Source: Psychrobacter sp. M13
GTDB taxonomy: Bacteria; Pseudomonadota; Gammaproteobacteria; Pseudomonadales; Moraxellaceae
DNA length: 64,000 nucleotides
Direction: 5' to 3'
Assembly: GCF_030718935.1 (NCBI RefSeq)
Contig: NZ_CP132194.1
Span: 1,488,001-1,552,000 of the forward strand
Position 1 is the first letter of the stretch, and every line of letters starts with the position of its first letter. Position numbers and translations under genes: made by a program. Below, in pieces: positions 24,711 through 64,000 of the stretch. Below the pieces are notes generated by a model. That model worked only from the letters and a program-made list of their open reading frames with translations, was not told the origin of the DNA and did not search any database.

Positions 24711-26723
24711 ATGTCATTGCCTATTCAGCACTCTTTGGTTAAAAAACAAGCATCCCACCTTGAACCTATTAAAAACAATAAGCATAAAACCCTTTCACTA
24801 GCAGTCTGTGCCGTGATGCTTGGTAGCACTGTGTTAGTAGGCTGTCAATCCAATCCTACACCAATCAAAAACAGTGGCAAAGCTATGATTGATTTCAGTG
24901 TCGCCGATAGCCGTCAAAATCAAGCCCAAGCGCAGAGCTTTAATACGGCACTTAATGCTAATGATGAGCGTTATGAGCAGCTATTTGATCAAAGCCAATT
25001 TCCTAGTACAGAAACCCAAGCCAAAACTCGATTAATAAAAGCCATACGCCAGCATTTAGCGACAGAGCAAGTTGCCGTAGCGCAAGCGCGTTATTATTCA
25101 ACGCCTTTTATTAAGTCCGATAGCATTGACGCAGGATCTACTAGTCTACTCAAGACAGTTATTGAACTCTATGCTTATAATGCTGAAAATCAAAGCTATA
25201 GCGATTATGATGATGCAGAAGACGATAGTTATTATGAAGAAAGCGTCTACGAAGAGGATGAGTTAGAAAGTGATAGCCGAGTGGACGCAGCAGACGAGGT
25301 GGTCGTTGTAGAGCCCGACGCTGATGACTATGACGCCGCGCTTGAATATGATGCTGAGGGTTATGATGAGTATGGTTATGACTACGATGGCTACGATAGA
25401 GATGGCTATGACTATGATGGTTATGATTATTATGGCTATGATATAAACGGCTACGATTATGAAGGCTATGATGAATACGGTTATGATCAAGATGGTGACT
25501 ATGGCTATAGCTCGGACGACGATTATGAAGATAGCGGCATAAAGGATAAGCTTGATAAATTAAACCCAAAAGGGTTATTAAAGAGCTATGAGGCGATGCA
25601 AATTCAAAAGCAGCAAGCGAGCACTAACAAAGATAGTGTCACTGCAAATGAGCCTTTGACAGGTATGCTTGGCAGCATGTTGGGTATGCTGGATCGTACC
25701 CCTGAGCAAGTTCAAGCGATGAATGCTTATCAATACAAAAACTTAACCTTCAATAGTGTGAGTCACTATAAGCCTGAGCAAAAACAACTGCAGAGTGTCT
25801 ATAGCTACGACTACCTAACGCCAACGCTTAGCTCATCGATACAAATACCGCTAGCACTGGATTTTAAAGACAGCCGTATCACTCTTGATCCCTCGGCATT
25901 GATGCCGCTAGCGGCTTTGCTCAATCCTGAACATACGCCGCTACCCAACGAGATGACAGCACATACGGTAGATTTTGGTCTGCCTGAGAGTATAACCTCG
26001 CAGCTGCCTTTTGAGGTGATATATGATGCGCTCATCAGTGCGGTACAAGAGGGTATGGCGGAGCTGCCTGAGGACAACTTCAGTGCTATAGATATCAAAG
26101 GTGATGCCTTTGCAAAAGAGGTAGGGGCCACGCGCGCAGTAAAGGTCTATTTTGGCAGTAAGCAAAGCGGTGAGTTGCTCGGTAAAGTCCTTAAACACTT
26201 CAGCCAGTCACTAGATAGCTATGTACAGGCCAATCCTGATAAGTATCCTGATGATGCTGTGCTCAGCCGTGCTATTGCCAAAATCCAGCTCTATAATAAA
26301 GGCTACCAAAGCGCCGATATAGGGTCGCTGATGCAGCTGATAGAGGCGATCGGCCCTCTGTCATTTAACCAAGTCAATTACTATTATCTGGACAGCTCAG
26401 ATCGCCTGCTCGCCAAGCAACAACGCCTCAATATAGGTGGCGATCTGTTCGGTCAACAGACGGCTATGCTCAATCAAGTACGCTACGATAAAGCCCAGTT
26501 TAATCAGCATACACTAACACCATTATTAACGCAGTCTTTTGGTGTGAATGCTGCGCCTGCAATAGATGGCAATGCTTGGCTTGACGATCAGCGTTTTCAA
26601 AAAGAGAGACTCTCGCAAGCGCGTTATGCTCGCTATAGTTATGACGATAGTGACTATGACTCTTATAATGATGTCACTGAAGACGTTGCTGATGCTTATG
26701 AAAGTGACACTGATAACGATTAA
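24711..26723 (+). CDS. Large acidic lipoprotein with nine GYDxx pentapeptide repeats
   Basis: I do not recognise a named family. The 670-residue protein has a long basic n-region, a hydrophobic stretch and a lipobox LVGC with Cys45, so it should be a lipoprotein. Residues 160-216 are acidic. Residues 217-261 are nine consecutive GYDxx units (such as GYDEY, GYDYD, GYDRD), followed by an acidic DDD segment. From about 300 to 640 there is a mixed alpha/beta domain without membrane segments. The C-terminus is again Asp/Tyr-rich (YDDSDYDSYND). A second lipoprotein with the same plan follows 58 bases later, sharing the segment DE-V/I-VVVE, so the pair is likely paralogous. Function is unknown; an exposed or metal-binding Asp/Tyr tract is only a guess. 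Confidence 0.8.
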   Translation: MSLPIQHSLVKKQASHLEPIKNNKHKTLSLAVCAVMLGSTVLVGCQSNPTPIKNSGKAMIDFSVADSRQNQAQAQSFNTALNANDERYEQLFDQSQFPSTETQAKTRLIKAIRQHLATEQVAVAQARYYSTPFIKSDSIDAGSTSLLKTVIELYAYNAENQSYSDYDDAEDDSYYEESVYEEDELESDSRVDAADEVVVVEPDADDYDAALEYDAEGYDEYGYDYDGYDRDGYDYDGYDYYGYDINGYDYEGYDEYGYDQDGDYGYSSDDDYEDSGIKDKLDKLNPKGLLKSYEAMQIQKQQASTNKDSVTANEPLTGMLGSMLGMLDRTPEQVQAMNAYQYKNLTFNSVSHYKPEQKQLQSVYSYDYLTPTLSSSIQIPLALDFKDSRITLDPSALMPLAALLNPEHTPLPNEMTAHTVDFGLPESITSQLPFEVIYDALISAVQEGMAELPEDNFSAIDIKGDAFAKEVGATRAVKVYFGSKQSGELLGKVLKHFSQSLDSYVQANPDKYPDDAVLSRAIAKIQLYNKGYQSADIGSLMQLIEAIGPLSFNQVNYYYLDSSDRLLAKQQRLNIGGDLFGQQTAMLNQVRYDKAQFNQHTLTPLLTQSFGVNAAPAIDGNAWLDDQRFQKERLSQARYARYSYDDSDYDSYNDVTEDVADAYESDTDND

Positions 26724-56833: not shown

Positions 56834-59800
56834 TTAACTAGCAATTTTCTGGCAACCTTGACCACTAATATGACTAAAGCCACCTGAAAGTTTGGTAACC
56901 TGAATTTGCGTTAAAATGCGCTCTTTCAAAGCCGCTACGTGAGAGATAACACCAATCAATTTACCTTCTTGTTGCAAGCTGGTCAGGGTATCAAGGGCAA
57001 TATCAAGCGACTCTTCATCTAAAGTACCAAAACCTTCATCTAAAAACAATGAATCGACGCGAATATTATGACTGGCCATCTGTGACAGTCCGAGCGCTAG
57101 TGCTAGACTAATAATAAAACCTTCACCGCCTGATAAGTTCTTAGTACTGCGAATCTCGCCACCTTGATAGTTATCGATAACGTTGAGCTCCAACGCATTG
57201 TTATCATCGCGTATTAGTAGGTAGCGATCGCTCATTTTATGCAATTTTGCATTGGCATGACTGACCATAATATCGAAGGTTAAACCCTGCGCGAAGGTGC
57301 GATACTTTTTACCGCTAGCGGAACCAATCAATTCATTAAGTTGTCGCCAAACTTGCAGCTTTTCTTTTTGCACATCGATAGCCTCTCGTTTTTCTTGCTG
57401 ACTATTCTTCTTCTCACTATTGTCTTTAAGCTGTTGACTCATTGCACCTATAGTCTCAAGCAGGCGATTATTATCTACCTGAACCAGTTGCTGTTTATCA
57501 ATAAGCATTTCTCTATTATCAGCCGTCAAAGGGTTGGCTTGTTTTTCTGCTAATATTTGCTGGGTCTGCTGTAGTGCAGCGCTCGCTTGTTGTAGAGCGT
57601 TATCGATGTGCTGTTGCTGTACATTTAAAGAATTACGCTCATCTAGTGGCAGGCGTGCTGCTACAAAACTGTGCTCGGTAGCAAATTGCGAGCTTGCCAG
57701 CGCTGAGGTAAAGTCGCTTTGTTGAGCATGTAGGGTCGTAGTAGCAGATTGTATTTGCACTGCAAGCTTTTGCTGGCTGTCTTGTAATTGGGCGAGTCGT
57801 TGCGCAGTATTATCGTGCGAGCGTTGCGCAGTTGTCTGCTCATTTTTTGCCTGCTCTAACAAGTCACGTAGGCGCTCCTCCTCGACATCAGGATTTTTGT
57901 TTTCGATATTCTTCAACTTCTCATCGCGCTGTTGCTGTGATTGCTTCAGTGCAATTTCTTTATCACTGACTATCTGACTAAGCTTAAGCCGCTCATTTTT
58001 TTCATTATTCAGTTGGGCTTGTTTGGTTTCAATCTGAGCATGTAGATTACCTAGCATAGTTTTTAAGGTTTGCTGCTGATCTTTTTTCTCATGGAACACT
58101 GTCTTTAACTGCAACAAAAACCCGCGCTGCTGACGCAAAGAGTGCAGATGTTGCTCAATCCTTACGTCACTAAATATACTCTGCGTATCAATGCTGTTCT
58201 TTAAAGCCTGTAATTGCTCAGAGATATCTAATACCTCATCAATATAATTTGTATAGTTAGTAGCGGGATATTTATCTACTGATGCATGCAGGCCAGCACC
58301 AAGCGTTTGCAACTCAGAAAAATTATTACTGATCGTTTTCTCAAAACTTGCCAGCTGTTGTTGGTTGAGCTTGATGCTGGTTTCAATCTCACTAATGGCA
58401 CTGGCCTGAGTAAAGCGTTGCTGCTCCGCGTTTTCGATGGCGTTGCTAACAATAGCTTGCGACTCAGTCAGTGCCTCATATTGAGATACTATCGATTTCA
58501 GCTGCTGTTTTTTCTGAGTCAATTGCTCTCGAATAGTGCTTAAGACAGACTGGATATTATTAATAAAGTCAGCGTTATTAGCGTTAGTAATAATATTTTT
58601 TAAAGGTTCGATAATAGCGCTAATAGTATCGGTATCAGTATTTTGCTTATTATCAGACATCGATAGGTCAAGCAAAGACGCTATGATATTTCGTATCTCA
58701 GCCGTTACGGTTTTTATTTGAGTATGTATCGATGCCAATTGCTGCTGTTGCTGATCAATACGGTTTTGCTTAGTAGCACGCTCAATCTGCTGCACTGATA
58801 AATTCTGCTGCAAGGTATCAAGTTGCTGATCTAATTCTTTGATCTGCTGCTGGGTTTGAGAAGTGACGGACTGCTCATCATTGCTAGCATTGGCGCTATT
58901 TTTGCTTTGCTCCAAAATAGGATGATGCTGACCATAAGGATGCTCGGTTGCACCGCAAAGCGGGCAGGGGTGATTGTCTTGTAGCTCAACAATATAGTCC
59001 TCAAGCTTTGCGACTTTTTGTAGTAAATATAGCTGCTGTTGCTTGTCTTGCCGTTTATCTTTGGTCTCTGCTATTAGCGTCTCATTTTCCGTAATCAAAA
59101 GACGACTAGCAGCCATCTCTTTATTGATTATAGGTAACGCTGTTTCTATTTGACGGCTTTCTTGATCAAGTTCAGCAACTCGCTGCACTTTAGAGCTCAC
59201 GTGCTCGATAGTACTGTTGATCTGATCAATTTGCTCTTGTTCCACTCGCATCTGATTCAACGGCTTGTCGGCGATTAATTGTGCTCGCTGCTGCTGTAGC
59301 GTCTCTAATTGAGTGCGCGTGTCACTCATGGCTGCTTTATCAGCAGCTTGCTGCTCATTGAACTTCTCAAGCGCCGCTTGTAATTGATTGGCTTGTTGCC
59401 TAGCGCTCATTCTGTCAGTTGCTAAGCTTGTATTGTTTTGTAGTAACGCCTTTAGACGACTGCAATTATTATTAAAAGTCGCGATATCGGTATCAAGATC
59501 ATTAAGCTCATGGTGCATATTCAAAAAAGTATCAATACTTACCAGCTGCTCTTTACTGGTGGTCTGTAATACGTGATGGCTATTAATCTCTTGCGTTAGT
59601 CGCCCGATGTTAGTAGCGAGATTATCCTTACGTAGAGTGTTATCAGTTAGGCTATGGGTTTGTTGATTTATATCAGCGTCTAAGGCGCGTACTTGAGCTA
59701 ATATAGGCAAGGTAACTTGTAGCGCGTTATTAGAGTGCTCGCTAAGCTTATTAGCTGTATCTAGTTTGATAGCGGCTTGTTCGAAGTCTGCTTGTTTGGT

Positions 59801-60778
59801 CAGTATATTATCACTCAGTGCTTGCTGTTCATCGGTCAGGCTTTTAACCGTATCTCGATGATAAGTGAGTTGACTGTATTGACTATCTAACTCTAGTGCT
59901 TTATTCGCGGCTGAAAGGCGTGCTGCATCTGGAATAAAGTTTTGCTGTGACTGCTTAGCGGCTATTAGCTCATTATCATAAATCGTAAGCTTTTGCTGCA
60001 ACTCGCTCACGGCATCCAGCCAACTTATTTGCTCATACAACTGGTTAAGCGCTTGTTGCTGCTCGCTCTGCGCCGTCTGCTGGATTTTTAAGGTTTGCTT
60101 AAGCTCAGCTTCTTGCTCGCTATCTAATAACGTTAATTCATCGAGACCGAATTGTAGTTTGCTGAGTGTCTCTTCCTCAGAGCGTTTTTTCTCATGGACG
60201 TGCTCGGAGATAGTCGCATAAATATCGGTACCGGTTATCTTCTCTAAGATATCGGCACGCTCGTCAGATTTGGCTTTTAAAAACGCTGAAAAACTGCCTT
60301 GAGCCAGTAGTATCGAGCGGGTGAACTGCTGAAAGTCCATCCGTGTCAGCTCAATGATTTTATCTCGGGTGCGCGATAACTTACTCTCTAAAATTTCAGC
60401 TTCTTTTGAGGGATCACTATTTAACTTGGCAATCTCATGAGTGGCATCTTGCAAGTTGCCATCAGACTTACCATAAGCGCGGCGCTGACCCCAACGGCAG
60501 CGGTATTGTCTACCGTTTAAATCAATCACTACTTCGGCAAAACACTCGGCAGTTTGGCGGGTCATGACCTCATTACTGCTTTTGCTAATGCTAGCAATAC
60601 GCGGCGTCTCGCCATACAAGGCTAAGCAGATGGCATCCAAAATAGTGGTCTTGCCAGCGCCCGTTTGCCCAGTGATGGCAAAGATACCCTCATTAATAAA
60701 AGCGCTATCGCTAAAATCGATATGCCATTCGCCTTTTAAGGAGTTGAGGTTTTTTAGTCGTAGTTCGATTAGGCGCAT
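56834..60778 (-). CDS. sbcC: Exonuclease subunit SbcC
   Basis: SbcC is the SMC-like ATPase that with SbcD cleaves hairpins and processes double-strand break ends. The 1314-residue protein has Walker A AITGQTGAGKTT at the N-terminus and two long coiled-coil arms rich in Gln, Glu and Leu. The zinc hook is CPLCGATEHPYG near residue 608, at the tip of the arms. The C-terminal half has the ABC signature TKNLSGGEG and Walker B SLFLDEGFGTLDEES. It is longer than E. coli SbcC (1048), mainly by longer coiled coil. The gene is separated from the upstream LRR gene by 20 bases. Confidence 0.96.
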   Translation of the reverse strand: MRLIELRLKNLNSLKGEWHIDFSDSAFINEGIFAITGQTGAGKTTILDAICLALYGETPRIASISKSSNEVMTRQTAECFAEVVIDLNGRQYRCRWGQRRAYGKSDGNLQDATHEIAKLNSDPSKEAEILESKLSRTRDKIIELTRMDFQQFTRSILLAQGSFSAFLKAKSDERADILEKITGTDIYATISEHVHEKKRSEEETLSKLQFGLDELTLLDSEQEAELKQTLKIQQTAQSEQQQALNQLYEQISWLDAVSELQQKLTIYDNELIAAKQSQQNFIPDAARLSAANKALELDSQYSQLTYHRDTVKSLTDEQQALSDNILTKQADFEQAAIKLDTANKLSEHSNNALQVTLPILAQVRALDADINQQTHSLTDNTLRKDNLATNIGRLTQEINSHHVLQTTSKEQLVSIDTFLNMHHELNDLDTDIATFNNNCSRLKALLQNNTSLATDRMSARQQANQLQAALEKFNEQQAADKAAMSDTRTQLETLQQQRAQLIADKPLNQMRVEQEQIDQINSTIEHVSSKVQRVAELDQESRQIETALPIINKEMAASRLLITENETLIAETKDKRQDKQQQLYLLQKVAKLEDYIVELQDNHPCPLCGATEHPYGQHHPILEQSKNSANASNDEQSVTSQTQQQIKELDQQLDTLQQNLSVQQIERATKQNRIDQQQQQLASIHTQIKTVTAEIRNIIASLLDLSMSDNKQNTDTDTISAIIEPLKNIITNANNADFINNIQSVLSTIREQLTQKKQQLKSIVSQYEALTESQAIVSNAIENAEQQRFTQASAISEIETSIKLNQQQLASFEKTISNNFSELQTLGAGLHASVDKYPATNYTNYIDEVLDISEQLQALKNSIDTQSIFSDVRIEQHLHSLRQQRGFLLQLKTVFHEKKDQQQTLKTMLGNLHAQIETKQAQLNNEKNERLKLSQIVSDKEIALKQSQQQRDEKLKNIENKNPDVEEERLRDLLEQAKNEQTTAQRSHDNTAQRLAQLQDSQQKLAVQIQSATTTLHAQQSDFTSALASSQFATEHSFVAARLPLDERNSLNVQQQHIDNALQQASAALQQTQQILAEKQANPLTADNREMLIDKQQLVQVDNNRLLETIGAMSQQLKDNSEKKNSQQEKREAIDVQKEKLQVWRQLNELIGSASGKKYRTFAQGLTFDIMVSHANAKLHKMSDRYLLIRDDNNALELNVIDNYQGGEIRSTKNLSGGEGFIISLALALGLSQMASHNIRVDSLFLDEGFGTLDEESLDIALDTLTSLQQEGKLIGVISHVAALKERILTQIQVTKLSGGFSHISGQGCQKIAS

Positions 60779-60798
60779 GGTGGTATCTTTATGTTTGT

Positions 60799-62002
60799 TT
60801 AATAAAATGCATTGTAATTAGTAAGGTTTGGGAGTTTTTTTAATTTTTGGATATTTTCAATCTTATCTTTATCAAGGTTTATTGCTTCTAAACTTGTTAG
60901 ATTTTCAAAACTATCTGGTAGGCCTGTAATCTTATTGTTATCAATTTTTAAAATTTTTAAGTTTTTTAAATAACCTAAACTATCAGGCAGACTGGTAATT
61001 TGATTTTCGTCAACGGTAAGTATCTCTAGGCTAAGCAATTTTCCTATACATTTTGGCAGATTTTTAAGTTGATTATCTGATAAGTCAAGTAAGGTTAATT
61101 GATGTAAATTGCAAATAGTATCAGGTAACGTAGCAATTTTATTAGCAAATAAATGAAGTGACACTAGCTGAGTCATTGTTCCTATAATAGACGTTATTTC
61201 TGATAGCCCGTTATGAGAGAAAATGATATCTTCGAGTGACGTTATGGTACATAAACCCTTTGGAAACTGTTCAAATCTATTAAAACTGAGGTCAATCTCT
61301 GTCAGATTTTTCAGAGTGCTTAAATCACTAGGCAACTCAGTCATAGCATTCCAAGATAAATTGAGCTGATCAAGGAGTACAATATTTTTTATCACGTCAG
61401 GGAATTGCTTGAAAAAATTACCGCTAATATCTAGTTGAGTCAGTTGTGATAGATGACTCAGAGTATTTGGTAGTTGTTTTAGTTCATTACCTGATAATGA
61501 AATTCTTTCAAGTCTCAATAAGTTTCCAACACTGTCTGGAAAATCAATAAGTGCATTACCTCCTAGATCTAATGTTCTTAAGTGCTGAAGCTTGTCAATT
61601 TGATAATGAAATTCTTTCAAGTCTCAATAAGTTTCCAACACTGTCTGGAAAATCAATAAGTGCATTACCTCCTAGATCTAATGTTCTTAAGTGCTGAAGC
61701 TTGTCAATTTGATTTGGCAATTTATTGATTTGACATTCTTCAAGACTAAGAAAATACAGATTTTTTAGATTAAGAATACATGCTGGAAAATTTATAAGAG
61801 GGCACTTTATAATGCTTAAAGCGTTAAGGTTAGTAAGTGAGTCAAAACTTTCTGGAAACTCTGAAATATTATAATTTTTAAGCTCAAGCATTGTTAGATT
61901 ACTAAGCGCTTCTACATCTCTTGGAATGACATCCTCATCAATCTCATTTTCAATAGCCCAATCAATAATAGCTTGTAGCTTATCCTGATTTTCTAAACCC
62001 AT
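60799..62002 (-). pseudogene. Leucine-rich-repeat protein gene, frame-broken by a 109-bp tandem duplication
   Basis: The gene encodes leucine-rich repeats of about 23 residues (pattern LxxLxxLxLxxNxIxxLPxxI/L), as in the cytoplasmic LRR proteins of many bacteria. Starting from ATG 62002 (a GTG at 62008 is an alternative), the frame runs to LERISLS and then meets Asn and stop at the junction of the duplication. Beyond it, the original frame continues to 60799. Positions 61492-61604 and 61601-61713 are identical, offset by 109 bases, which is not a multiple of three. Removing one copy restores a single frame (366 codons from 62008). The gene sits between sbcD and sbcC in the same direction. Function is unknown. 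An assembly or read error is the main alternative. Confidence 0.85.
61492..61713. repeat. Perfect 109-bp direct tandem duplication
   Basis: The block at 61492-61604 recurs without mismatch at 61601-61713, giving a period of 109 and a four-base overlap (TGAT) at the junction. Because the copies are identical, it is recent or actively maintained, and the 4-base microhomology suits slippage or template switching. Confidence 0.95.
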
Positions 62003-62004
62003 AA

Positions 62005-63600
62005 TCACTCAGCCTGACTATCATCATGATAAATACTATGCAATATCTGCTGATAAGCATCCCGTAACGATTCTCTTTGAGTTTCGGCTATTTCATGAGT
62101 CGTCAAGCAGCGCTCAAATACTTCAAGCTCATTGAGATCTTGCAGCGCCTCAGAAGTTTGCTCTTGATTGAGTACTTTATTATAAGTACGGGTGTTTTTA
62201 ATCTTTAATACTTCAAACGGTAAACCTTCTACCATTGCGCTAACTTCTTCACGCAGCTCACTGACGATTTCATCACCATTATAGATAATCTCAAGCCAGA
62301 TAGATTCGTCACTATTTATATCATTGCTAGCCATAGCTAGAATAGTTGTCGCAATAGTTTGCAGATCACCTGAGACTTGCGCTAATTGTTGAAAGCAAGG
62401 AATAGCAAGCGTGGCGACTTGCATGCCAGTGTCGTTATTAGAATGAAGGGTTTCGACAGTAGTAGAGGAATTATAAAGTGTAGTGTTATTTTTTACTTCA
62501 TCAACCAATGGATCAGGGTCAGAAACTTCTTTAATACTAGCGTCAAAATCTTCAACCTCATCAAAGCCAAACAAATCATCTATCAAATCGTTGGATTTGT
62601 TGAAAACTTTTTTAACCGTTTTATCTACTTTTACGTTAGCAATTTCAATCACTTCATCAACTACATTTTCGACTAAACTTTTATCAGTAAAAGCGTTGGC
62701 AAAAGTATTTTCCACAGTTCCAAACTGGATAAGCAACACCTGCTTTTGTTGACGAGCCTCGCCAAAACCCATGGCGATAGGCGAGCCTGAATAGCGGATA
62801 TGCTCACAGCCTCCGACACGTTGCGGTACGTGCAAATGACCAAGCGCCACATAATCAAAGCATTCATCAAACATCTCAGCAGAGATTTTACCTAAATTAC
62901 CGACATACAGCTCACGTACACCATCATCTTCGGTGGTTTTACTACCAGCGGCAAATAAATGACCTGTCGCGATTATAGGGATATGGCGTTTATGAACTTT
63001 ACTTAGCTGTCGTTGATTATCTTTCGCAATTTGAGCGACGCTATCATAATGGCTGCGAATACCTGCTATAACGTTAGCGTCTTTGCTATCGGCTGACTCG
63101 CCAGCTTGACTACCTCGCACATCACGGTCACGCAGGTAGGGCACAGCAGCAATAACGCACAGCGGCTCGCCATTGTTATCATCTAACATCAGTACTTCAT
63201 CGTTTAAGTCGTCACAAGCCGTGCCGATGATATGGACATTTAAGAATTTGAGTACTTGGCTGGGCGCGTCTAAAAAGGTGGGCGAGTCATGATTACCTGC
63301 GACAATGACGATATGCTGACAGCAAAGAGTGGAAACTTTACCCAAAAATTCATAGTACAACGCCTGAGCGCGATTACTTGGGGTCATGGTATCAAATATA
63401 TCGCCTGCGACAATCAAGACATCGACTTGGCGCGCGCTAATAGTCTCTTGTAGCCAGTTTAAAAATGCTTCAAATTCTTCATAACGCAGTCGCCCATACA
63501 GCCGCCGCCCTAAATGCCAATCTGAGGTGTGTAGAATGGTTAAAGACTTGCTATCAGTGAGTGCAGATACAGTCGAATATTTGGTTGAAGGTGCAGACAT
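62005..63600 (-). CDS. sbcD: Exonuclease subunit SbcD
   Basis: SbcD is the metallophosphatase nuclease subunit of the SbcCD complex. The phosphoesterase motifs are all present: LHTSDWHLGRRLYG near residue 24, IVAGDIFDT, VAGNHDSP, ATGHLFAAG and ALGHLHVPQ. The protein has 531 residues against about 400 in E. coli. The excess is a low-complexity acidic stretch around 310-395 (Asp, Val, Lys, Thr-rich, DDLFGFDEVEDFD) between the nuclease domain and the C-terminal SbcC-binding part. About 20 residues precede the first motif. Its stop overlaps a GTG of the LRR gene (GTGA), and sbcC follows later, so the three form one operon. Confidence 0.95.
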   Translation of the reverse strand: MSAPSTKYSTVSALTDSKSLTILHTSDWHLGRRLYGRLRYEEFEAFLNWLQETISARQVDVLIVAGDIFDTMTPSNRAQALYYEFLGKVSTLCCQHIVIVAGNHDSPTFLDAPSQVLKFLNVHIIGTACDDLNDEVLMLDDNNGEPLCVIAAVPYLRDRDVRGSQAGESADSKDANVIAGIRSHYDSVAQIAKDNQRQLSKVHKRHIPIIATGHLFAAGSKTTEDDGVRELYVGNLGKISAEMFDECFDYVALGHLHVPQRVGGCEHIRYSGSPIAMGFGEARQQKQVLLIQFGTVENTFANAFTDKSLVENVVDEVIEIANVKVDKTVKKVFNKSNDLIDDLFGFDEVEDFDASIKEVSDPDPLVDEVKNNTTLYNSSTTVETLHSNNDTGMQVATLAIPCFQQLAQVSGDLQTIATTILAMASNDINSDESIWLEIIYNGDEIVSELREEVSAMVEGLPFEVLKIKNTRTYNKVLNQEQTSEALQDLNELEVFERCLTTHEIAETQRESLRDAYQQILHSIYHDDSQAE

Positions 63601-63651
63601 AGCGATATAAATTTATAATTAGTTTAAAGGCTTCAGTTTAGCATAAAGCAT

Positions 63652-63688
63652 AAAAAAACCACGCTAACATTCATTAGCGTGGATTTTT
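63652..63688 (-). terminator. Terminator of cysG
   Basis: CCACGCTAA and TTAGCGTGG pair around a short loop. T runs lie on both strands, including seven after the stem on the minus strand. It separates cysG from sbcD. Confidence 0.9.
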
Positions 63689-63709
63689 ATGGCTATCATT
63701 TATATAATG

Positions 63710-64000
63710 CTAGCTAATAACCAACTGCTCTAAACTATCGCTCTGTTGTTCAGCTAAGTTAGTAATCATTGATAGCGCATGGGCTTGCTGGCTAGATGGG
63801 TTCTCAGTCAGTTGATCTTTTGGTGTTGAAGCCGTACCACCGCGTAGCCAATTATCAGCTTTTTCATGATGACTATGCAGATTATACCAAGCTAAATCAT
63901 CATGCAGCGCAACCACATCGCCCACAATTAATAGTGCAGGGGTCGGCAGTTGGTTTTGCTCTTGCAGCTCATTGATAGTCGCAAGCGTCCCTGTTAATAC
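63710..64000 (-). CDS. cysG: Siroheme synthase / uroporphyrinogen-III methyltransferase, C-terminal end
   Basis: The frame is open to the window edge; 96 residues are visible. They include LTGTLATINELQ and PALLIVGDVVALHDDLAWYN, which match the end of the uroporphyrinogen-III C-methyltransferase domain (PALIIVGEVV-type motif). It methylates uroporphyrinogen III to precorrin-2 on the way to siroheme, the cofactor of sulfite and nitrite reductases. Whether the NAD-dependent dehydrogenase domain of CysG is fused upstream cannot be seen. The last 70 residues beyond AWYN are an Asn/Gln/Ser-rich extension. Confidence 0.85.
   Translation of the reverse strand, partial: VLTGTLATINELQEQNQLPTPALLIVGDVVALHDDLAWYNLHSHHEKADNWLRGGTASTPKDQLTENPSSQQAHALSMITNLAEQQSDSLEQLVIS

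What the first reader, a model, noticed from the sequence alone, without database searches (positions are those of the whole stretch)
61492..61713. A perfect 109-bp tandem duplication switches off an LRR gene and could be reversible
Seen: 113 bases match exactly at a 109-base offset, with TGAT shared at the junction. The extra 109 bases shift the frame and create a stop right after the first copy. Deleting one copy would give exactly 1101 bases (367 codons with stop) from 62008. Known: tandem duplications of this size collapse readily by slippage or RecA-dependent recombination. Inference: the LRR protein may be phase-variable, and its position beside the SbcCD nuclease, which acts on aberrant DNA structures, is suggestive.
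Basis: partly seen in the sequence, partly recalled or inferred. Interest (0 to 1): 0.75.

Follow-up and report, generated by a model that had tools for sequence, protein, structure and literature searches.

The report
Recent tandem duplication splits LRR gene
In this Psychrobacter strain a 109-base stretch was recently copied head-to-tail inside a leucine-rich-repeat gene lying between two DNA-repair genes, breaking a gene that is intact in another strain of the same species; such copies can collapse again, but nothing here shows that the cell uses it as a switch.

Summary
In detail: 61492-61713 is a perfect two-copy tandem duplication (period 109, exact match 113, TGAT shared), the strongest tandem repeat in the window. 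It splits a leucine-rich-repeat (LRR) gene between sbcD and sbcC into frames of 137 and 273 codons. A second genome of the same species (Psychrobacter immobilis 1184) has one copy and an open 359-codon gene at the same place. The five bases that differ between the strains inside the unit are shared by both copies, so the duplication arose after the strains split. Best reading: a recent, strain-specific, microhomology-associated duplication that knocks out or splits the gene. Reversal is plausible from published work on similar repeats but untested here. A dedicated phase switch and a role of SbcCD in the event are not supported. A side result may matter more: 5 of 101 genus genomes carry an LRR gene between sbcD and sbcC, their N-termini form one supported group, and the same gap elsewhere holds toxin-antitoxin-like and candidate defence genes.

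The parts
61492..61600 (-). copy of the 109-bp unit that is second in transcript order
   Evidence: identical to 61601-61709
61601..61709 (-). copy of the 109-bp unit that is first in transcript order
61710..61713 (-). 4-bp microhomology TGAT (ATCA on the coding strand) that extends the exact match to 113; ATCA lies at both edges of the single unit in the same-species genome
   Evidence: 4 bp or more at 3.0% of 200,000 random junctions in this gene
61595..62008 (-). 5' frame of the split LRR gene, 137 codons: N-terminal cap plus about four repeats (hand count); GTG start overlaps the sbcD stop (GTGA)
   Evidence: Pfam LRR_14 8.7e-17
60799..61620 (-). 3' frame of the split LRR gene, 273 codons from a TTG; holds a full copy of the unit and the remaining repeats
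   Evidence: Pfam LRR_14 8.6e-34
62005..63600 (-). sbcD, 531 aa, upstream neighbour
   Evidence: TIGR00619 197.9 bits, cut-off 77.65; PRK10966.1 376.3, below its cut-off of 450
56834..60778 (-). sbcC, 1314 aa, downstream neighbour, starting 20 bases after the LRR stop
   Evidence: Pfam SbcC_Walker_B above cut-off; NCBIfam SbcC models match at down to 7.2e-168 but below their cut-offs

Best explanation
A recent, strain-specific tandem duplication of 109 bp, probably made by replication template slippage or end joining at a 4-bp microhomology (ATCA), inside the LRR gene of an sbcD-LRR-sbcC gene cluster. It shifts the frame and ends translation at codon 138, leaving an N-terminal fragment and perhaps a re-started C-terminal fragment, so the continuous repeat solenoid (about 14 repeats, hand count) is lost. 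Shown: the duplication, the frame break, the one-copy open allele in the same species, and the order of events. Inferred: loss of function, and collapse back to one copy at a rate well above point mutation by the same slippage. It is an ordinary null or split allele that happens to be revertible, not a dedicated switch.
For: Exact duplication. Same-species genome G027 (P. immobilis 1184) has one copy and an open 359-codon gene between the same two genes. Five substitutions between the strains inside the unit, all shared by both G000 copies, place the duplication after the split. The two gene pieces, compared apart with G027, give dN/dS 0.31 over 349 codons, like the held part of sbcC (0.28) and above sbcD (0.19); apart from the duplication and the A-run difference at the 3' end no break is seen, so decay has hardly begun. 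Microhomology of 4 bp or more is found at 3.0% of 200,000 random junctions in the gene. E. coli deletes 101-bp tandem repeats at high frequency without RecA (PMC8378479, passages).
Against: No reads were available, so an assembly or culture origin is not excluded. Only one other genome holds the whole gene. No expression data: the 273-codon frame could be re-started from TTG 61620 with a weak Shine-Dalgarno match (-3.3 kcal/mol; the natural LRR starts score -1.9 and -2.5, so it is no weaker than those), so some function might remain. Reversion was not measured.
Confidence: 0.78

Rival explanations
1. The locus is a phase-variation switch: the LRR gene is repeatedly turned off by this duplication and on by its collapse, to the benefit of the population.
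For: The break is of a kind that can revert cleanly, and in-gene duplications that can revert are known for pneumococcal capsule (passages). One-copy and two-copy alleles both exist within the species.
Against: Two genomes, one of each state, are what a single event gives. The one-copy allele has only a 4-bp repeat from which to make the duplication again. LRR function and any selection are unknown. The interruption seen in G075 is a 2-base difference in an A/T run in a genome whose sbcC is interrupted too, so it lends no help.
Confidence: 0.08
2. Assembly or culture artefact: the real chromosome has one copy.
For: Perfect identity of the copies, and a length in the range of assembler overlaps (recalled, from no call); reads not seen.
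Against: The genome is in 2 contigs, 3,177,391 bases and the rest about 30 kb, and the locus is not at a contig end. A joined overlap with arbitrary ends would show a junction match of 4 bp or more only about 3% of the time. No other exact duplication with a period near 109 turned up in 464 kb.
Confidence: 0.09
3. The gene is still expressed as two overlapping fragments that work together, each keeping one full copy of the duplicated segment in its own frame.
For: Both frames are open through a whole unit and overlap by 26 bases. TTG 61620 could restart translation near the stop.
Against: A TTG start with a weak ribosome site; each fragment would expose an uncapped hydrophobic solenoid end (general knowledge of LRR proteins); in the same species the gene is one frame.
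Confidence: 0.05

Closest known systems
Spontaneous in-gene sequence duplications in pneumococcal capsule genes (type 3 locus; cap8E and tts), Waite et al. 2001 and 2003
   Same: Tandem duplication inside an open frame switches a gene off and can collapse to restore it.
   Different: There phase variation was reported (titles); here no reversion, phenotype or function is known. The Waite papers were seen only as titles in reference lists and through passages of two later papers, PMC4022640 and PMC4243769.
Microhomology-mediated tandem duplication (MTD), reported in the yeast gene ssp1
   Same: A segment between two short microhomologies is duplicated in tandem, makes a premature stop, and is unstable.
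   Different: A fungus (that it is fission yeast is recalled); reversion reported there. Seen as passages of a review, PMC13207564; the primary paper (Dan et al. 2021) is not held.
E. coli assay of 101-bp tandem repeats in plasmid tetA
   Same: Almost the same repeat length; deletion of one copy by template switching without RecA.
   Different: An engineered plasmid assay. Passages of PMC8378479.
Simple-repeat slipped-strand phase variation, e.g. icaC of Staphylococcus aureus
   Same: Reversible frame change in a gene, RecA-independent.
   Different: A short unit in several copies can slip in either state; here the one-copy state has no such tract at the site. Passages of PMC4117637.

Membership tests
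Reversible in-gene tandem duplication (capsule-type) | Perfect tandem duplication inside an open frame, length not a multiple of three | tested here: met
   109 bp, 100% identical, frame shifted
Reversible in-gene tandem duplication (capsule-type) | One-copy allele with an intact gene exists | tested here: met
   G027 single copy, 359-codon frame
Reversible in-gene tandem duplication (capsule-type) | Measured reversion to one copy | not testable with these tools
   no reads or cultures
Reversible in-gene tandem duplication (capsule-type) | Phenotype that changes with copy state | not testable with these tools
   function of the LRR protein unknown
Microhomology-mediated tandem duplication | Short microhomology at both ends of the unit in the one-copy allele | tested here: met
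   ATCA at both edges in G027; 3.0% of random junctions have 4 bp or more
Simple-repeat phase-variable gene | Short-unit hypermutable tract in the coding sequence in both states | tested here: inconclusive
   no other tandem-repeat row in the gene; a run of 7 or 8 A near the 3' end differs between the two strains but changes only the last residues
SbcCD substrate (hairpin or palindrome) | Inverted repeat or stable hairpin at the locus | tested here: not met
   of inverted repeats of 20 bases or more, only pairs with arms 656 bases or more apart; fold z -0.70, 43 of 200 shuffles at least as good
LRR type III effector families of NCBIfam (XopAC, XopAE and others) | Score above the curated cut-off | tested here: not met
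   3' piece: 128.7 against 450 and 114.7 against 600; all seven families listed for it and all four for the 5' piece are below cut-off, so the shared repeat is what matches

The most novel reading that the evidence does not exclude
The gap between sbcD and sbcC in Psychrobacter is a small cargo site for defence-type genes, and the LRR protein made there, translated directly after SbcD, is a partner or sensor of the SbcCD nuclease in phage defence or stress. The tandem duplication would then be a reversible off-state of that partner, and through loss of translation across 0.8 kb it may also lower SbcC.
Probability: 0.08. Interest if true: 0.65.

Novelty: new member of a known kind. Interest (0 to 1): 0.3.

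Why it matters
As a mutation it is ordinary: one more case of a probably revertible tandem duplication in a bacterial gene, useful as a caution that pseudogene calls can be reversible. What could matter more is the setting: a distinct LRR protein group that sits between sbcD and sbcC in three diverged Psychrobacter lineages, in a gap that elsewhere holds toxin-antitoxin-like and candidate defence genes.

Tried and rejected
LRR-unit gain: rejected, 109 is not a multiple of 69. SbcCD hairpin processing: no inverted repeat of 20 bases or more with nearby arms (shorter ones not sought), fold no better than shuffles. Effector or toxin: NCBIfam effector models matched far below cut-off. Solved relatives: 288 PDB sequences match the G027 protein, best 60 shown, LRR proteins of many kinds; no functional pointer. 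Defence family for the LRR proteins: no PADLOC match for those of G027, G043 and G008. LRR remnants in other gaps: tblastn of three LRR proteins against nine loci (L037-L045) gave three hits, E 0.12 to 0.43. More strains: the genome-contig scan gave the same-species genome and one unrelated genus. The protein database gave 358 hits to the G027 protein, 120 listed, the best by E-value 32% identical over 91%, and for the 137-residue piece two partial proteins, 85 and 86 residues, that end before the duplicated unit. Outside the genus: of 249 family genomes (evenly drawn), 10 match the 60-residue N-cap at 1e-5; one of them, G173, is of another genus, and the 3,954 bases fetched round it, up to the contig end, show no SbcC or SbcD match. 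Gap table: where a genome had several pieces of a match I kept one by hand (last SbcD piece in G067, G048, G078, G077, G044, G011; first SbcC piece in G048, G050); gaps are between match ends, not gene ends; G073 (two contigs) and G062 (no SbcC) dropped. Tree: 29 loci (L003-L031; one search gave loci for 30 of its 49 matching genomes, one of them G000 itself) plus the window gave 32 rows; L028, a second frame of L021 and the C-terminal fragment of L013 were left out for lack of the motif. Literature: seven searches. One search (Psychrobacter, leucine-rich repeat, sbcD; any two) held 15 papers, 10 listed, none on this locus by title. Passages of PMC3411829, PMC13410964 and PMC4292784 were seen and not used.

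Full report
Observation. The window holds, on the minus strand, sbcD (63600-62005), an LRR gene (62008-60799) and sbcC (60778-56834). Inside the LRR gene the 109-bp unit 61492-61600 is repeated exactly at 61601-61709, and the match continues for four bases to 61713. The tandem repeat scores 444; the next in the window scores 123. In 464 kb of this genome (window plus 20 stretches) the exact scan found three loci: this one, one of period 24 (L048) and one of period 63 (L063). The 5' frame ends at TGA 61597-61595 after 137 codons; the 3' frame is open from TTG 61620 for 273 codons.

Comparison with the same species. Of 105 genus genomes searched with the 273-residue piece, 49 (G000 included) have an LRR match at 0.001; apart from G000 only G027 is close (92%, E 9.4e-152; the next by E-value is 40% identical, 7.4e-41). 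G027 is marked as the same species; a contig of the same length, P. immobilis 1184 CAJGZL010000001.1, was found by the genome-contig scan. There the gene is one 359-codon frame between sbcD and sbcC, with one copy of the unit. Inside the unit five bases differ between the strains, and both G000 copies carry the G000 base at all five: the duplication came after the strains separated, unless later conversion made the copies alike. ATCA lies at both edges of the single unit, which gives the 4-bp junction; 4 bp or more is found at 3.0% of 200,000 random junctions in this gene. Near the 3' end G000 has 7 A and G027 has 8, which changes the C-terminus; which is older is not known.

State of the gene. 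Taken as two separate pieces against G027, 349 codons give dN/dS 0.31 (5' piece 0.32, 98 codons; 3' piece 0.31, 251 codons, last residues left out); sbcD gives 0.19 and the held part of sbcC 0.28. dS is lower in the LRR gene (0.094) than in sbcD (0.204) and sbcC (0.168). Apart from the duplication and the A-run difference no break is seen in the pieces. So the gene was under constraint and the break is young. By hand count the fragments are the N-cap with about four 23-residue repeats, and about eleven repeats in the 3' frame. The TTG has a weak ribosome-binding match (-3.3 kcal/mol), but the natural starts are no better (-1.9 and -2.5 for the LRR gene, -0.9 for sbcC), so a restart cannot be dismissed. 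A promoter scan of 60700-63800 found 7 sites against 10.1 in shuffles. Polarity on sbcC is therefore possible but only inferred.

Reversibility. [quoted passage not shown] coli without RecA (PMC8378479, passages). For pneumococcus, one paper contrasts an irreversible point mutation with capsule loss by in-gene duplication (PMC4243769, passages), and another gives an expected reversion of at most about 1e-5 for insertions of nine bases or less (PMC4022640, passages); the Waite papers themselves were seen only as references. A fungal review describes the same kind of event from microhomology (PMC13207564, passages). A two-copy 109-bp allele should thus collapse at an elevated rate. That is expectation, not a result. 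The reverse step, making the duplication anew from a 4-bp repeat, should be rare, so the locus lacks the two-way slippage of a switch such as icaC (PMC4117637, passages).

SbcCD. One search (20 bases or more) listed only inverted repeats with arms 656 bases or more apart, and the duplicated strand folds at z -0.70, 43 of 200 shuffles doing at least as well. Nothing here ties the nuclease to the event.

Where the gene sits. Of 105 genus genomes, 103 gave SbcD and 102 the SbcC N-terminus at 1e-20; 101 have both on one contig and strand, median gap between matches 91 bases; 10 of 101 gaps exceed 250 bases. Five of the 10 hold an LRR gene: G000, G027, G043, G008, G075; G000 and G027 are one species, and the G008 and G075 copies are near-identical, so these are three lineages. 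In all five the LRR start overlaps the sbcD stop. Their N-caps form one group among 32 rows (support 100/97, 200 of 200 bootstrap trees; long branches within the group were warned of), although full proteins of the three lineages are only 33-35% identical. An N-cap of this general form is common in Psychrobacter LRR proteins. G008 and G075 are 99-100% alike from sbcC through the LRR gene into sbcD, then drop to 76.5% and 69.3%, which looks like recent transfer of the cassette, though G075 is an 85%-complete assembly. The other five gaps: a Gp49-like and HTH_37 pair in G074 (a like pair in G038 was read from the translations only); a Fic protein and an AbiJ_NTD4 protein that matches candidate defence family PDC-S32 at 6.8e-104 in G031; and frames without a Pfam match in G055, G077, G038 and G031 (eight frames of these five gaps were scanned, shorter ones were not). 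The LRR proteins of G027, G043 and G008 match no PADLOC family.

Verdict. It is a recent, probably revertible null or split allele in one strain. Phase variation is possible but unshown, and the SbcCD link to the event is not supported. The sbcD-sbcC gap as a cargo site with its own LRR group is the better lead.

Noticed in passing
gap between sbcD and sbcC in Psychrobacter genomes; window 60779-62004; L034-L041: 10 of 101 genomes have a gap over 250 bases (median 91); contents are LRR genes (5), a Gp49/HTH pair (G074, and a like one in G038), Fic plus an AbiJ-like candidate defence gene (G031), and unknown frames: a small cargo site.
   Followed up: partly
L035 (G008) and L036 (G075): The LRR cassette with flanking sbcC and the sbcD 3' part is 99-100% identical between two genomes of the genus, then identity in sbcD falls to 76.5% and 69.3%: likely recent recombination.
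   Followed up: partly
window 60835-60841: A run of 7 A (coding strand) in this strain is 8 A in P. immobilis 1184 and changes the last residues of the LRR protein.
   Followed up: no
L036 (G075): The LRR gene is interrupted by a 2-base difference in an A/T run relative to G008, and sbcC in that genome also has stops; perhaps sequencing errors.
   Followed up: partly
P0121, P0122: Two partial proteins, 91% and 80% identical over 62% of the 137-residue piece (the first from a Psychrobacter MAG), suggest that further lineages carry this LRR gene; both end before the duplicated unit.
   Followed up: partly
window 25362-25487: Imperfect tandem array with periods 15, 30 and 45.
   Followed up: no
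window 62599-62874: A stretch inside sbcD, before its C-terminal domain, varies more than the rest between the two strains (87.2% identity); in some genus genomes the SbcD match comes in pieces.
   Followed up: no
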